Origin: Cyathus striatus
Lineage: Eukaryota; Basidiomycota; Agaricomycetes; Agaricales; Nidulariaceae
Direction: 5' to 3'
Length of the DNA stretch: 64,000 nucleotides
Assembly: GCA_025738555.1 (NCBI GenBank)
Contig: JAOVFP010000001.1
Coordinates: 186,001 to 250,000, forward strand
Positions 32,531 to 48,166 of this stretch are shown here, one piece after another. Within the stretch, counting starts at the first letter, position 1. Each line of letters begins with the position of its first letter. A model generated the notes under the pieces. That model had not been told where the DNA came from. It did no database searches and saw nothing but the letters and a program-made list of their open reading frames with translations. Position numbers and translations under genes: made by a program.

Positions 32531-33057
32531 TAGTAACTACAAGGTGGTTAGACAGGGCTAGTTTAGTTAGATTACGCTAGATATTGCTATTTTGTTAGCT
32601 ATCATATTCTAGATCTCGGATCTCAGTAGACAAATTTAAATATCATGCTATTTTCATACACATTCCTTAGACATGGCTAGACAATACCGAAGGCCTTGTT
32701 ATATCATCTTAGAGGTACCTAGATATCATCATGAATACTCTATGCCCTTCTATAAAGTACTTAGAATGCACTATATAAAGTGTTATATATCCCTAGACTG
32801 GCATAGATATACATATACAACCACTTGACAAACATGTTGCAATGCTCCAATACATTACTAGACAACTCTTGATTGACAATATACAGTCATAGATCTTGCT
32901 ATACCTGCGTTGATAAAGCAATCTAGTGAAATCCTTAAAGTTCTAAGCATTAGATGATCCTAGATGGGCTTTGATGTCAGTAGAAAAAAATCTAGATATT
33001 CTCGATTTTCTATGTCGGTCTAGTCACTGCTAAGCATTATATTTTCATAGACTAGAC
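32531..33057. other. AT-rich flank of the DUF6589-RecQ element
   Basis: No gene. It contains CTAGATATTGCTAT and GCTATACCTGCGTTGAT words that recall the interior of the element at 45304-46356. The right flank of the big element (38775) has TTTTGACTGGGG, like that element's terminus. The large element may have landed in a relative of it. The last nine bases (AGACTAGAC, 33049-33057) are the left target-site copy. Confidence 0.4.
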
Positions 33058-33469
33058 TAGTCTCGGCTACCCAGCCATTAGCACTGGGCCAAATCCAAAT
33101 TAGGATTTCCCACTGTGAACGTCTGGGATAAAACCAACAGGTTTGGCAGGGGTTTGCATTCGGTGTTCTCGGGCTTCGCGAGCCCTCATCCACTGTCATT
33201 ATTTGATGGTTTTGTATATTAGTAATCGTATTAGTCACTTTTATGATGTAATTTTGATGTAACTAATTACATTATATAATCACATTGATTTCGATCGCAT
33301 CATGTTGATTTGAATCGCGTTGCAAGTGCATTGCATGCACATTGCACACGCATGCAGTAGTTTGATAGGTTTGAATCGCATTGCATGTGCATTCACCTCT
33401 ATTATCATTCCACTCATCATCTCCCCCCCTCATACCTCACTTTTATTACACTCTGCTTGCTGAGCTATG
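33058..33469 (+). repeat. Left TIR with embedded promoter
   Basis: Matches the complement of 38296-38746 along its length, except for a stretch of about 39 bp present only in the right copy. It contains words GATTTGAATCGC and TGCATGTGCATTGCA, then a pyrimidine-rich leader, and ends in GCTTGCTGAGCTATG, so identity stops exactly at the initiation codon of the DUF6589 gene. Confidence 0.9.
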
Positions 33470-36225
33470 CCTAAGTTGCCTAGATTTGGGGTTTATCTCC
33501 CTGATGGGATACAATTTCATTCAGACTACAGTGAACCTGAAGCCATGACCTCTCCTGGCCTACCACCTTCATCACCACTGCCTATTGACCCAAGTATATG
33601 TGATGAGTATCGTCTGGCTTTAAATCCAAGCTCTGATTTACTGGATGATGATCCTACTGATCAAGATTTTGAAGTTAAAAAAGAGCGAGGATCACCAACA
33701 ACTTTAGATCAGAAAATTCTTGGGACTATTGCACATATGCAAAATATGTATTCATGCCTTTCATTGGCTGAATTTTTCATTGGTCTTTTCAGATCAGATG
33801 ATGTAGCTCTAAAGGCATCAACTGGAATATTTTATGCTGGAGGTTCACATATCAAAATAATGGAAAATTGGTGGAATCATCAAGGTGGATTGAAAGATGA
33901 TGCAATGGTAGAATGGATTATGGAAAAGGCAGCCATTATATGTGCTCGTGAAAGCAGCCACCTCACCAATAGGGCATCTACTGGACCACATACTCAAAAA
34001 GCTGAGGAGCTTTGCCTTCCTATTGCTAAAATCAATGTTGCAAATGTGAATCAATTTCAAGCAAAACATCTTGGAGCCTTGTATGACAAAGTCACTCCAC
34101 ATTTTCAAAAATTGATTAAGGCTTTCATCACACTAGGTACAGACAATGATCCTAAAAGGAATAGAGACTTTGTATGTGTAATTTCTACTTCAGAGAGGAA
34201 CAGAGTACTTACAATGAATAGGGTCAGATAATGATTACTTCAATAGCACTAAATCTTCGGAGCCAGAAGACAAATTACCATCAAGCTATCAATTCATTGA
34301 TCTTCTGGGATAACCGCATGCCCAAACATCTCATCCAAATGCTTAATAAATTTGGAATTTGCACATCCTATGTGTTTCAAATTAATGGAATTAAGTCACT
34401 AAGTCAGAGTGCTGGTCAAATGGCAAAGGAAGCTGCAAACAACTCATTAAAAATTAAGATGCTACCTTATGATAATTTTAATTGGATATCAAATGCTTGG
34501 GAGTCAAGTGCTCTGCATAAATCTCAGACTCATGATCAAGTATCTGCACTACTGGTTATTCTACCAACACCTACTGGTCAAGATGCTAAAACTATAACAG
34601 CCATACCTTCATTTAAGGAGAAGGCAGGAGCACGTCACAAAATTAACTCATGTATTTCACTCACCAACATCACTCCCTCTAAATCTGATAATGATGCATT
34701 CCGGAAGAATGCAATTATACATGTTCAAAATATAATTGTGAATAATCTGGAGAACCTGAGTTACTTACAGAAGTTGGTTCCAAAGTTTGAAGACCAAAAA
34801 GCTATTCAACCACTAAAAACAGAAGAATATTATCTTCCAACATTTGATCAAGAGCAAGACTCAACAAAAGGAAATATGATTGTTCTTGAGCATTACTTTG
34901 GAAAGGTACTGGCAATACCAAAGGAAACCTTTGAGGATACAATGTTTACTGTACTTGGAGATCATCTGACTGTTGCACGTGATCGTGCAGCTCAAGACCA
35001 GCATGCTATTGATCTTTCTCCATATGCATTTGATCACCTTTCAAGTTTATGTATGGTTGGTGGTATAATGCATTATGAAATGAATTATATTTCAGCTCTT
35101 TCAGGAAATTTCTGGGGATCAGATGGAAACACGGATCCTGTTTCATTGTCAACATTTCACAAGTTATTACCAAACCGTATGGAAGTCAACTCTTGCAAAA
35201 TTAATTATTATGCATGGATGAGATTTTTGGATGTTATTCTTCAAGGTCTTGCACTTAGTGCAAGCATGGCAGTTACAAAAACATCTTCATTGAATGAATT
35301 AGAAAGTATTATTCAATCAGACTCCAAATTACTCACAGGAATTGCAACTGTTGTGGTTGATAATTTACTTGTTCAATCTCTGGATAGACTTGAGGACTTG
35401 AGCATAAAGAAACTTTTAGGAGATACAGTAACAGGTCATTCAATACTCTTGTTTCATGACTTAATGATGCTTCGAGAAATGCATGATGCAGTAAAGCGAG
35501 GCCATCCAACTCGGGTTCTTCAAATGATTAAATTCTGGATGCCCATGTATTATGCAGCAGGGTGCTATAACTATGCTAATGAATGTATGGAGATTTTGCA
35601 CAACATAATTCATTATTGGCCAAGCCCATATGCTGATGTTGCATTTAATGGAATGTTTTTTAATCCTCATGGACATAAAGAAAACTTTAAGCCCACTGAC
35701 TTACATGTGGAACATTTGAATGATCGTATTAAAGAACGTGCACATGGATCAAATGCTTCCCCATCTGTATTGGAGAAGATAGTACCAGCTATGGGATATG
35801 TTCAAAACTTAACAGACTCAGTATTTGAGGAAATGGGAGTAGAAGATCTTAATCAACGTCACAATCATGTGAAACAGAAGACTGACATTTCTATTGTCAT
35901 TCACCATATGCAAACTCACAATATCTTTGACTTTGCACAAGATAAAAAATCTACACATACTGTAATTGATTTATACCGCTATGGCTTACAATGTGTTAGT
36001 GGTTTGAATGGTGGGCATGAAAAACATTTGGCCAGAAACAAGTTGCAATATCGAGAATGTCACACAAATGATTCTTCAATCACCACAGATGAAATGGAAG
36101 ATGAAATAATAAATGAGACAGAATTAAACACAGGTGTGGAAATTATACTTGGTACAGAAGGTGAAGACTGGAATGATATTGAAAGATTTGGATTGAATGG
36201 CAATGATGGTGATGAGACTTACTAG
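33467..36225 (+). CDS. DUF6589-family protein, putative transposase
   Basis: Two exons: 33467-34171 and 34228-36225, with a 56-nt GTATGT...CAG intron (34172-34227) removing a stop, give 900 aa. Without splicing the frame would end at 34231. Family features: an N-terminal helical region (about 70-235); the ITSIALNLRSQKTNYHQAI segment after the junction; YDNFNW (316-321); LGDHLTVARDRAAQ (478-491); GGIMHYEMNY; and an acidic NECMEIL followed by TDLHVEHLN (725-733). DUF6589 proteins are abundant in agaricomycetes. Asp317, Asp480 and Glu687 or Glu690 are placed where an RNase H-fold DDE nuclease could have its triad, but this is inference. The gene is carried inside long TIRs beside a helicase, which supports a role in transposition. 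It starts at the first ATG after the TIR. Confidence 0.8.
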
Positions 36226-36291
36226 ATATCAATAGAATATATTGTATTACTGTACAAGATTTGACAAAAATAACTATTATTTACTACCAAA

Positions 36292-38298
36292 TTAAAATGC
36301 TTCAGGTCCCTGAGTCATTTGCCATTTCAACTCAGTTGGAATAGCTAATTCCACTTGTGAAGCAGGTTCAGACTCAGACTCATCACCACAAACATGATGT
36401 ACTGCAGAATGAAGTGCAATAAGAAGTGAAGGAGAAAGGGACTCAAGATGTAAAATGGAGGTCACTGCATAAAGATCATCAATATTCTTAATGGTAAGGG
36501 CTTTCTTTGCAATCACAAGTAGATCCCGCTTTGATACCAAAGACTCTGGTCCATAGGCAGGCCAGTCATCCTTCCAATCAGATAACCATATTGCCCACCT
36601 CCACTGAAAGAGAGCATCATAAATCTTTTGCACATTACTGTCAGAGATTTTAATTCGAGGTGCTTTTGAAATGTTCTCAGGCATGAAAGTATAGTGGCTT
36701 GTGAGAAGTGTTAGTTGGGGGTTGCAGTTCATACATGAGTGGCAAGGAATATCATCGCTGCGAGGTGGGTTTTCCAGCCACTTATCAGTGCACTGTTGTA
36801 AGCATTGATCAGTCTGAACAAGATCAAGAAGACCCATATCCTCATATTTAGGATTCTTAACAGTTGGGGAGTCTGATGTATCACCAGTCATTGATTTTTC
36901 AACTAGAATTACTCCAGTTGCAGTTGATCCTTTGCTTCGGGCTCCTCTACCTCTTCGCTGTTCCCATTGGACAATAGACAGTCCACGACATTGGTATTGC
37001 ACAACAAGTCCAACTCCTGGGAAGTCCATACCTGCACCAATCTTCTCTGATCCCAATAAAATTTTGATACGCCCTTTCAACATGCCAGTAATGCACTGCC
37101 ATTGATGTTCCTCAGACAGTCCAGCATGTAAAACATCAAGCCAGGCAATAGGAAGATTAACAGAGGACAGCTGTTTATGTATCCACCAGAACATATCTCT
37201 AAGCATATCAAGATCATCACAGTATATAATCATTGATAGCTGTTCAGCTAGATTTATTACAAATCCTAAATCAAGAAAAGATCTAGCAGAGTGCTGCATT
37301 CTCTTCACAATGGTTTTCAATTCTGGACGAAATTTTCTCAGGTTGATGAAATAATACTCAGGGAAAAAACCAGCATAAATAATAAGCACATCACGGTAGT
37401 GCCTTGGCAATGTTGCAGATAATGCTACCAAAGGAATTGTAGGGCCCAGAACTTGTCGTAGGAGATGTAAACGTGTGTAGGAGGGGCGCCATGAGACACT
37501 CTCATATATAGAATGTGCTTCATCAATGTAAACAGCTGAAAGGCGATCTTTAAATGAGACTGAATGAAGTATCTCAGCTATTTTTGGTGTCTCAAGCATC
37601 TCTGGGCATATATACACAACATGCATTTCATCATACTGAGCTAGTCTCTTGAGAATATCAAAACTTGAGTTTGTTGAGCAGAGAAATAAACCAGATATAC
37701 TTGAATTCTTATGACTGAGAAGAAAGATCAACTTAGAAAGGATAGTGTTAATAAAATATTCAAATGTGACACACCGATTCTCTCCTTGAACACCTAAGCT
37801 TGTAAATGGGACAATAACAAGTGAGATACCAGTCTTCTGTGCTAAGAGAGGTAGTATCCATAGCATTGACTTTCCAGCACCAGTTGGGGCTACCACACAG
37901 ATATCTAACTTTTGTTGCAGTATCCTATTTGCACCTTCAATTTGATAGTCATGCAGCTTTTCATTTTCTTGAAGCAAGTTATGAGAATGTGCCAAATTGT
38001 TCCATTCATTGGCAGAGAGATCTGGTATAGAGAAAACTCTTGGAGATGAGGGGAAATTTAATGCTTTTCCCCTTGATTTTCCAGAGGAAGCAATAACATA
38101 GGGTGAGAAAGAGGGAGCTTTAGGGGTAGAGATAAAGCCATTTCGAAAATTTTGTTTATTGAGTGTTGGTATATGTGAAATTAAGCTTGAAGTCTCTGCC
38201 TGGAACTGGACTGGAGTTGGAGTTGTTGGTTGTGACTCATTTTCATCAGTTCTTGCTCTCTTGTTGCATTGAGGAGGCCAGATTGGAATATCATCCAT
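36292..38298 (-). CDS. RecQ-like superfamily 2 DNA helicase
   Basis: 668 aa as one frame. A likely 60-nt intron on the minus strand (37774-37715, GTGTGTCAC...TTCTCAG) keeps the frame open and would give 648 aa; splicing joins VQGENR to HKNSSI and fits the family better. Motifs in the unspliced numbering: Walker A APTGAGKS (137-144), motif II DEAH (259-262), motif III SATLP (294-298), motif V region GAGMDFPGV (421-429), motif VI QRRGRGAR (447-454), and a C-terminal cysteine cluster (CHSCMNC) in the place of the RecQ zinc-binding part. The N-terminus has a basic KRAR cluster, possibly nuclear. It would unwind DNA 3' to 5'. It is convergent with the DUF6589 gene, 66 bp between the stops. Confidence 0.9.
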   Translation of the reverse strand: MDDIPIWPPQCNKRARTDENESQPTTPTPVQFQAETSSLISHIPTLNKQNFRNGFISTPKAPSFSPYVIASSGKSRGKALNFPSSPRVFSIPDLSANEWNNLAHSHNLLQENEKLHDYQIEGANRILQQKLDICVVAPTGAGKSMLWILPLLAQKTGISLVIVPFTSLGVQGENRCVTFEYFINTILSKLIFLLSHKNSSISGLFLCSTNSSFDILKRLAQYDEMHVVYICPEMLETPKIAEILHSVSFKDRLSAVYIDEAHSIYESVSWRPSYTRLHLLRQVLGPTIPLVALSATLPRHYRDVLIIYAGFFPEYYFINLRKFRPELKTIVKRMQHSARSFLDLGFVINLAEQLSMIIYCDDLDMLRDMFWWIHKQLSSVNLPIAWLDVLHAGLSEEHQWQCITGMLKGRIKILLGSEKIGAGMDFPGVGLVVQYQCRGLSIVQWEQRRGRGARSKGSTATGVILVEKSMTGDTSDSPTVKNPKYEDMGLLDLVQTDQCLQQCTDKWLENPPRSDDIPCHSCMNCNPQLTLLTSHYTFMPENISKAPRIKISDSNVQKIYDALFQWRWAIWLSDWKDDWPAYGPESLVSKRDLLVIAKKALTIKNIDDLYAVTSILHLESLSPSLLIALHSAVHHVCGDESESEPASQVELAIPTELKWQMTQGPEAF

Positions 38299-38746
38299 AG
38301 CTCAGCAAGCAGAGTGTAATAAAAGTGAGGTATGAGGGGGGGAGATGATGAGTGGAATGATAATAGAGGTGAATGCACATGCAATGCGATTCAAACCTAT
38401 CAAACTACTGCATGCGCGTGCAATGTGCATGCAATGCACTTGCAACGCGATTCAAATCAATGCATGTGATTTAAATCAACGAGATGCGATTCATATCAAC
38501 GTGATGCGATCGAAATCAATGTGATTATATAATGTAATTAGTTACATCAAAATTACATCATAAAAGTGACTAATACGATTACTAATATACAAAACCATCA
38601 AATAATGACAGCGGATGAGGGCTCGCGAAGCCCGAGAACACCGAACGCAAACCCCTGCCAAACCTGTTAGTTTTATCCCAGACGTTCACAGTGGGAAATC
38701 CTAATTTGGATTTGGCCCAGCGCTAACGGCTGGGTAGCCGAGACTA
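38296..38746 (-). repeat. Right TIR with embedded promoter
   Basis: Inverse copy of the left TIR, ending at the ATG of the helicase gene. It holds an extra stretch of about 39 bp of ATTTAAATCA/TCGTTGAT-type words near 38455-38500. It keeps CpGs where the left copy has TG or CA (for example CGCTAAC versus CACTAAT in complementary context), so the left copy is more decayed. Confidence 0.9.
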
Positions 38747-38756
38747 AGACTAGACT

Positions 38757-39157
38757 TCATTTCCTTAGATTGTGTTTTGACTGGGGTTGAGCGGCGAGCC
38801 TGTCACGCACCGGGGGGGGTGCCGAATTGATTTGATTGGTACAGTAGTCGGAGGATTGGCTCGTTCCTGGTACAAATATTTGCACTTGTGTACCTAAGGA
38901 GAGCTGTGCGGCGATTGATTATCTATTCTCTATTGCTCCCTCACCTCAAGGCTTCTTTACTCATCGATGGAATCACCACTTGATACTCTTCAAGGCGCTC
39001 AAATACAAGAGTTTATTATGTATGTTTCTGAATTTTAGATTCGACACTTACGACTCATTGCCCGTACTTCGAAAGAGCTCCAAGAGAAACATGTGTATCT
39101 TGTCACAGCTTCAGTGGTCCCCGATTTATTCTATCATACCTTCACGGACCATCAGAT
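38757..39157. other. Flank and 5' region of F-box copy
   Basis: 38757-38830 is the outer flank of the element. 39090-39150 resembles 47215-47275 (CAGTGGTCC..GATTTATTCT), i.e. a shared leader of two F-box copies. No separate gene. Confidence 0.4.
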
Positions 39158-40701
39158 TTGCATCGAAAAAATATCATCCCAGAAGGATCTAAGCGCGTAT
39201 TAAAGGAGTCAAATATCTCCTACGCAGAGTCCGAGGGAATACAACTGGATAAAGAGATCGCCCGTCTTCAACAAATAGTCGAAGCATTACAGCAACGCCG
39301 AGAGGCACTACGCAAGTTTGAAATACAGGAACGGTCTCTGTTTTCGCCTATTCGGAAACTGCCCATAGAATTGTTACACAGGATATTCCTCGGGGCACAG
39401 CCTCCTACACACTGGATTGATTGCGGCCATCCGCATACCTTCGTTCAGGAGATCACGGAGGTATCTTACTACTGGAGATCCGCCGCTCACTCATGTGCTC
39501 CTCTATGGGCCACCGGATTCCGTCATTTATCGCGAGAGCACAAACATTTATTCGGGGGATTTGTTGAGAAGTGCATCTTGCTTTCCAAGGATATGCTATT
39601 GGGTGTTTATTTAGTAAACCGATATTTGACGAGTGCTGGTGATCTGGGAGACAGCTGTATAGAAGCAATCGCAGCAAATGCTTATAGATGGGAATACTTC
39701 GTGGTTTGTAATGGGGACCAGCTGGACGCTATAATTAACCATATACCGAAAGATATGATATTGTCCCACCTAAAGAAGCTCTACATCCGAGTCGTACAAC
39801 TTGATACAACTCATTCTTTCTCTTTTAATCCAACCCCCGAGCTCAAACATATCAGGCTTCAGCATATCGAAAATCCAAATGTTCGAATTATACTTCAATC
39901 CGCTCCTTCTCTAACCCATGTCGATATCAGGCATGTCGTCAATCCTCTGGACATATTCAGTGACTTCCCCTGGTCGCAGATTACCCACTGCACCTTGGAT
40001 AATAATAAATTTTATCCAGATGAATTTTGCGATCTACTTCAAAGTATGACAAATATGCTGCATTTGAGCATAGGCGGGCCGACAGGTACTACACAATCTA
40101 TCGTGCTTCCACATTTAGAAAAACTAGAAATCGCGAGGAGCCAGAGCTATGGCCTGGACGTTCTTATAACCTGAAAGAGCCATATATACCCACGTATGCG
40201 GTGGAATTTCTTCAGCGATCTAAATGCTCATTGAAGGAATTGAAACTCATGAAGATGCATGTATTCGATATTTGGCACATCTCAGAACTCAGGACCGTTA
40301 CGAAATTGCATTGGGATCCTGGAAATTACATCTCCAAAGGTCTCCAATCGCTAACAAGTCCTTATCAAGATGAAGGATGGACTCTTTTCCCCATGCTTGA
40401 GACATTGATTATCGAATCCAGTATTAATATTGGAGAAATAGGCAAAGAATTGGTCACCATGCTGAAATCTCGACTTCGACCTAAACTGGCACACATATCA
40501 GGAAGGATGGAGTCCGGAACATTTGGGGATTTCACTGAAGACGTGACCTCTCTCAAACTTGTGAACATTACCCTCGATGATAGTTATCTTGATGAAGCTG
40601 AGGTTGCTATTTTAAGGGAATTTCTCCAGTCAGATGAGGTAAAGTCGTCTGGAGTTAAAATAGAGGTTGTAGGTAAGAAATTCTTATACTGTAGCGTGTA
40701 A
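39158..40701 (+). pseudogene. F-box protein gene with one frameshift
   Basis: Frame 1 (to about 40155) gives a coiled-coil segment (SYAESEGIQLDKEIARLQQI, then 15 further residues), the F-box core FSPIRKLPIELLHRIFLGAQ, and leucine-rich sequence up to LPHLEKLEIARSQSYGLDVL. The reading then moves to another frame (40170-40701) with YIPTYAVEFLQRSKCSLKEL and a C-terminal MLKSRL motif. The paralogue at 21-23 kb has continuous sequence across this point (EILTTPYLKMLHL), so about 7 nt appear to be missing here. It would be an SCF-type adaptor. It is either a recent pseudogene or an assembly error, because no other lesion is visible. Confidence 0.75.
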
Positions 40702-48076: not shown

Positions 48077-48166
48077 TTCGGATGCGGGGAATCGAACCCC
48101 GAGCTGCCGCGATCCTGGTTCAGAGCCGTTGAGAGGCGGCAATGTTAGCCATTACACCATATCCGA
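48077..48166 (-). tRNA. tRNA-Glu (CTC) with an 18-nt intron
   Basis: On the minus strand the acceptor stem TCGGAT pairs with ATCCGA. The D arm is TGGTGTAATGGCTAACA, an A-box match, and the T arm GGGGTTCGATTCCCC is a B-box match. The anticodon stem GCCGC/GCGGC encloses the loop CTCTCAA, which gives anticodon CTC with U33. Eighteen bases starting after the first A of the loop's AA form an intron at the canonical 37/38 position. The mature length is 72 nt, without CCA as in eukaryotic nuclear genes. Confidence 0.9.

What the first reader, a model, noticed from the sequence alone, without database searches (positions are those of the whole stretch)
33058..38746. A TIR element pairing a DUF6589 protein with a RecQ helicase
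Long inverted repeats, a candidate 9-bp target duplication and two intact convergent genes make this look like a complete autonomous mobile element. DUF6589 proteins are common in agaricomycetes and generally have no assigned function. Being bracketed by TIRs suggests this one is a transposase, with the RecQ-like helicase as partner. I know of no named DNA transposon family with this gene pair. Three acidic residues (Asp317, Asp480, Glu687/690) sit in conserved blocks and could be a DDE triad.
Basis: partly seen in the sequence, partly recalled or inferred. Interest (0 to 1): 0.88.

Follow-up and report, generated by a model that had tools for sequence, protein, structure and literature searches.

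The report
Mushroom jumping gene with helicase partner
This is a complete-looking copy of a fungal jumping gene that carries its own transposase (until now filed only as a protein of unknown function, DUF6589) and a RecQ-like DNA helicase; it most likely belongs to the already described but little-studied AcademH group.

Summary
Window 33058-38746 is a TIR transposon with inverted repeats of 412/451 nt, a perfect 9-bp target duplication (AGACTAGAC) and two convergent genes, DUF6589 and a RecQ-like helicase. Other copies in the same 107-Mb genome confirm mobility: 11 of 14 elements with both ends have exact 9-bp duplications, 2 match at 8 of 9, 1 has none; 23 other places (70-76% identical) read across the window's joined flanks, an empty site. 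Within 6 kb, 73 of 93 DUF6589 loci have a helicase, all 73 convergent. A predicted DUF6589 structure (pLDDT 82.6) matches Hermes, P-element, Tn5, Transib and RAG1 best, and a D-D-E triad is conserved (window D319, D482, E689), so DUF6589 is best read as a DDE transposase. AcademH transposons (Kojima 2020) encode a helicase, occur in fungi and make 9- or 10-bp duplications; families here show both lengths. KolobokH (RecQ, TTAA) does not fit the duplications. Direct similarity to Academ transposases could not be tested. Verdict: a real element, new member of a known kind; the useful addition is a function for DUF6589.

The parts
33049..33057 (.). left target-site duplication AGACTAGAC
   Evidence: exact 9-bp match to 38747-38755; 23 repeats 70-76% identical elsewhere in the genome run through this junction without the element
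33058..33469 (+). left TIR, 412 nt, begins TAGTCTCGGCTACCC and ends on the DUF6589 start codon
   Evidence: same ends in other copies
33467..34171 (+). DUF6589 transposase gene, exon 1
   Evidence: ORF; N-terminal homology to full-length DUF6589 proteins
34172..34221 (+). intron, 50 nt (GTATGT...GAATAG), inferred
   Evidence: one of 28 frame-restoring GT-AG choices listed; chosen because it gives ...NRDFGQIMITS, as in homologs P0003 and P0016; no RNA evidence
34222..36225 (+). DUF6589 transposase gene, exon 2; RNase H-like core with D319, D482, E689
   Evidence: PF20231 1.6e-88; model of homolog P0010 and its PDB matches; residue conservation
36292..38298 (-). RecQ-like SF2 helicase gene, convergent; likely 60-nt intron at 37715-37774
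   Evidence: intron inferred from homologs P0121 and P0123
38296..38746 (-). right TIR, 451 nt, ends on the helicase start codon
38386..38521 (.). five copies of a ~16-nt motif GCGATTCAAATCAATG, the last four 19-20 nt apart; candidate transposase-binding array; the 39-nt difference between the two TIRs falls in it
   Evidence: the repeat finder family D1, alignment; role inferred
38747..38755 (.). right target-site duplication AGACTAGAC

Best explanation
A 5,689-bp DNA transposon, most likely of the AcademH type. SHOWN by sequence: TIR element, 9-bp target duplication, several copies and deletion derivatives at different sites, a helicase facing DUF6589 in all 73 pairs found within 6 kb. PREDICTED: an RNase H-like fold for DUF6589 with a conserved D-D-E. 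INFERRED: DUF6589 binds the long TIRs (perhaps the ~20-nt repeats inside them), pairs the two ends, cleaves them with metal ions held by D319, D482 and E689, and joins them to target strands nine base pairs apart; host repair fills the gaps, giving the 9-bp duplication. The RecQ-like helicase is a dedicated motor that opens or processes the ends or the gapped product. Because each TIR ends exactly on the start codon of a gene, the two arms would also work as near-identical promoters, so both genes would be co-regulated and possibly repressed by transposase binding. Short copies with intact ends move in trans.
Confidence: 0.82

Rival explanations
1. A separate DDE transposon superfamily (DUF6589-RecQ), like AcademH in TSD length and helicase use but not related to Academ transposases.
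For: No direct sequence link to Academ was shown; Pfam gives only DUF6589 above cut-off for the transposase; no held paper uses the name DUF6589; the named hits listed are all agaricomycetes (120 of 125 hits listed, 120 of 335; taxonomy recalled), whereas AcademH is said to occur in animals too.
Against: TSDs of both 9 and 10 bp, the helicase and the fungal hosts match what is said of AcademH; distant relatives are beyond the word-based protein search and the lists are capped.
Confidence: 0.14
2. KolobokH element (Kolobok DDE transposase plus RecQ, fungi).
For: RecQ helicase and fungal host (PMC9587614 passage).
Against: Kolobok makes TTAA 4-bp duplications (same passage); none of the 15 exact duplications found here is TTAA or 4 bp. 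The helicase is a separate convergent gene.
Confidence: 0.02
3. Mutator-like element (MULE): long TIRs and 9-bp duplications, with the helicase as a captured host gene.
For: Long TIRs and 9-bp TSD (MULE features recalled, from no call).
Against: No MULE or Mutator Pfam hit up to E=1; the helicase recurs convergently at 73 of 93 loci, so it is no chance capture.
Confidence: 0.02
4. Same element, but replicative (copy-out) rather than cut-and-paste transposition, with the helicase unwinding the donor element for synthesis.
For: A dedicated helicase is unusual for simple cut-and-paste (inference).
Against: Closest folds are cut-and-paste enzymes such as Hermes, P element and Tn5; ISCth4, also listed there, keeps the question open. 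Circular or abutted-end copies were not sought.
Confidence: 0.25

Closest known systems
AcademH DNA transposons (Kojima 2020, Mob DNA 11:15; not held, known here from its title and from passages in PMC10045372 and PMC10799480)
   Same: Helicase-encoding DNA transposon in fungi, 9- or 10-bp TSDs, low copy number in Basidiomycota.
   Different: Sequence kinship of the transposases untested; here the helicase is a separate convergent gene (the arrangement in AcademH was not seen in any call).
KolobokH (PMC9587614, passages)
   Same: DDE transposase plus RecQ helicase, fungi.
   Different: Kolobok TSDs are TTAA; helicase described as downstream of the transposase domain.
hAT (Hermes) and P-element transposases
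   Same: Best structural matches: RNase H core with an all-helical insertion before the last acidic residue.
   Different: hAT usually 8-bp TSDs, with 5-7 bp variants (PMC12730594 passage); P element 8 bp (recalled); no hAT or P Pfam domain here; no helicase in them (recalled).
Helitron
   Same: Encodes a helicase.
   Different: HUH nuclease and single-stranded transposition (PMC12730594 passage); here TIRs, TSDs and a DDE-type enzyme.

Membership tests
AcademH | Encodes a helicase | tested here: met
   RecQ-like SF2 helicase; helicase within 6 kb at 73 of 93 DUF6589 loci
AcademH | 9- or 10-bp target-site duplications | tested here: met
   9 bp in the window, L042 and L049 families; 10 bp in L039/L040; some copies have none; criterion from PMC10045372
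AcademH | DDD/E transposase | tested here: met
   predicted fold and conserved triad; no biochemistry
AcademH | Found in fungi (Basidiomycota) at low copy | tested here: met
AcademH | Transposase sequence related to Academ transposases | not testable with these tools
   paper and Repbase sequences not held
KolobokH | TTAA 4-bp target duplication | tested here: not met
KolobokH | RecQ helicase | tested here: met
MULE | MULE/Mutator transposase domain | tested here: not met
   no such Pfam hit up to E=1
hAT | 8-bp TSD (5-7 bp in variants) | tested here: not met
   9 or 10 bp
hAT | RNase H fold with helical insertion | tested here: met

The most novel reading that the evidence does not exclude
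DUF6589-RecQ elements are an agaricomycete-expanded DDE transposon superfamily of their own, in which a co-regulated RecQ motor driven from the same TIR promoter is an obligate part of the transposition machinery, possibly in a helicase-assisted replicative pathway.
Probability: 0.15. Interest if true: 0.7.

Novelty: new member of a known kind. Interest (0 to 1): 0.45.

Why it matters
Pfam lists DUF6589 as a family of unknown function, and no paper in the held library uses the name, although two searches alone gave 125 and 335 protein hits (overlap not counted). Identifying it as the transposase of a helicase-bearing transposon would explain an unexplained gene family, flag many predicted mushroom genes as transposon genes, and give concrete catalytic residues and ends for testing why a DDE transposon keeps its own RecQ helicase.

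Tried and rejected
AcademH paper sought by DOI, PMC id and PubMed id: not held; its content is known here only through its title, passages in citing papers (PMC10045372, PMC10799480) and recall. Literature searches for DUF6589 (0 papers), 'Academ transposase' (0), AcademH (6), RecQ/TIR/Agaricomycetes/transposase (12), and others whose listings were capped or short showed no DUF6589-AcademH link in the listings or in the passages read (PMC12210899, PMC10799480, PMC10045372, PMC8290104, PMC9587614, PMC12730594, PMC9674265; passages only).

KolobokH, MULE, hAT and Helitron were considered and rejected as above.

Animal relatives were sought with a distant DUF6589 as query: 120 of 335 hits listed, named ones all fungal, so inconclusive. 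The first helicase query alone paired only 34 of 93 loci within 6 kb; two further queries raised this to 73. At 8 kb one locus has a same-strand helicase as its nearest. The L042 helicase query (228 aa) has no Pfam hit; it is taken as a helicase because it matches the window's helicase (C1:223255-223590, E 2.2e-7, 31%) and shows a DECH-type motif by eye. Dropped before the TSD count: 7 of the 20 regions fetched (L032-L038), where my end-motif scan did not find both ends. DUF6589 hits were merged from 105 to 93 loci and helicase hits to 113 loci before counting, from lists that I retyped; the genome search scores only the best candidates, so counts are lower bounds.

The contig-length test used 119 of 120 listed DUF6589 hits (one has no contig) and 40 of 117 helicase hits; the other 77 were the control. 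'High-scoring' was set by me at the gap between 238 and 75 bits. Of the 21 matches one (P0151/P0114) joins different sources and may be coincidence, and same contig does not prove neighbours; consecutive gene names in Arthromyces matolae and Candolleomyces aberdarensis and eight contigs shorter than 5.4 kb suggest it. Recalled, from no call: MULE and P-element TSDs, absence of helicase in hAT and P, DDE chemistry, names of Pfam accessions PF16124, PF09382 and PF00570, and that the named species are agaricomycetes.

Full report
OBSERVATION. The window holds inverted repeats 33058-33318/38486-38746 (97%) and 33305-33469/38296-38460 (99%), which align as one pair of 412 and 451 nt, differing by a 39-nt gap and 7 substitutions. 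Six of the seven substitutions are CpG transitions, each with the CpG lost from the left arm, as expected if the copy has been methylated (inference). The flanks carry a perfect 9-bp duplication, AGACTAGAC. The gap lies among copies of a 16-nt motif, four of them spaced 19-20 nt.

GENES. DUF6589 needs one intron; of 28 frame-restoring choices, 34172-34221 gives 902 aa and a junction seen in homologs. Pfam DUF6589 matches at 1.6e-88; the only other hit, DUF3768 in the N-terminal ORF at 0.086, is below its cut-off. The minus-strand gene matches DEAD and Helicase_C and its PDB hits are led by RECQ5, RecQ and BLM; a 60-nt intron at 37715-37774 is likely, since its removal gives the reading found in homologs P0121 and P0123. 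Each TIR ends on the start codon of one gene, so the arms may also be near-identical promoters (inference).

COPIES IN THE SAME GENOME. The genome (107 Mb, 24 contigs) has 105 DUF6589 matches and 47 matches to the left TIR, both lower bounds. Of 20 regions fetched, 13 plus the window show both ends by my motif scan: 11 of these 14 have exact 9-bp duplications, 2 (L028, L029) match at 8 of 9 bases as read from the printed flanks, and 1 (L019) has none. The duplications differ from site to site. Two 853-bp derivatives at different places have different duplications, evidence of movement without own genes. The window's flanks, joined with the duplication kept once, gave 40 matches: the two flanks themselves, 23 places (70-76% identical) that run through the junction, and 15 short matches on the right flank only: the element landed in an older repeat. 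Four of the five full-length copies were aligned (the longer C4 copy was left out); they are 90.5-98.6% identical, and only in the window's copy are both frames open, read as they stand. The window's DUF6589 protein deviates at six columns that are otherwise at least 95% conserved, so its activity is not assured.

OTHER FAMILIES. Three further families were examined. L039/L040: two 5,722-bp copies with 10-bp duplications GCATGTTTTC and GATAACTTTT and ends TAGGCTC/TAGTCTCG, without long TIRs detected by BLAST. L042: 5,943 bp, 307-bp TIRs, duplication CCCGGAGTC; its sister copy on C14 has none. L049: 210-bp TIRs, duplication GACAAATAT; its sister L048 lacks the outer ~60 nt of the left end and shows no duplication. 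In each, DUF6589 faces a helicase; for L042 the helicase fragment has no Pfam hit and is identified by its match to the window's helicase (E 2.2e-7).

PAIRING. With three helicase queries, 73 of 93 merged DUF6589 loci have a helicase within 6 kb; all 73 are convergent; 20 have none found; at 8 kb one locus has a same-strand neighbour. Shifting the DUF6589 positions by 100-500 kb gives 2-3 of 93 in mixed orientations. In other genomes and metagenomes, 21 of 40 high-scoring helicase homologs share an exact contig length with a DUF6589 protein, against 0 of the 77 lower-scoring RecQ hits; in Arthromyces matolae and Candolleomyces aberdarensis the two proteins have consecutive names. The high-scoring helicases (238 bits and above) are well separated from the next hits (75 bits), and in the precomputed Pfam column they show only PF00270, PF00271 and PF04851, not the RecQ zinc, RQC and HRDC domains seen in many of the others (domain names recalled).

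WHAT IT IS. A helicase-bearing DDE transposon. A passage in PMC10045372 says that AcademH makes 9- or 10-bp TSDs, AcademX 3 or 4; passages in PMC10799480 put AcademH in Basidiomycota, Ascomycota and Mucoromycota at low copy. The four families here show both 9 and 10 bp. KolobokH has RecQ, but Kolobok duplications are TTAA (PMC9587614 passage), which none of the 15 exact duplications here is. Membership in AcademH is likely but not proved, because no Academ transposase could be compared.

MECHANISM. Shown: ends, duplications, movement of derivatives, recurrent partner. Predicted: fold and triad. Inferred: transposase-catalysed excision and joining 9 bp apart; helicase opening ends or processing the gapped product; joint expression from the TIRs. 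Cut-and-paste is preferred by fold kinship; replicative movement is not excluded.

NOVELTY. The element is a new member of a known kind. The assignment of DUF6589 as its transposase was not found in the held literature by the searches named, several of whose listings were capped.

Noticed in passing
window 32908-33057 and 38756-38793: The insertion site lies in an older dispersed repeat with at least 23 other copies (70-76% identical); just to the right, about 38797-38851, lies a different repeat with at least 15 matches at 90-94%.
   Followed up: partly
window 33058-33469 versus 38296-38746: Six of seven TIR substitutions are CpG transitions, all with the CpG lost from the left arm, suggesting methylation-driven decay.
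   Followed up: partly
L022 (G000:C4:4368709-4377441): A copy of this family is 8,733 bp, about 3 kb longer than the others, with an exact 9-bp TSD: probably a nested insertion.
   Followed up: no
L044/L045 (C14) and L019 (C12): Full-length copies without target duplications, although close relatives have them; recombination between copies or another insertion route.
   Followed up: no
L039, L040: DUF6589-helicase family with 10-bp TSDs and no long TIRs detected, unlike the window family.
   Followed up: partly
window 48077-48166 minus: ARAGORN calls an odd tRNA-like gene with an undetermined anticodon.
   Followed up: no
window 39158-40174 plus: 338-aa ORF beside the element; resembles an F-box type protein by eye only.
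   Followed up: no
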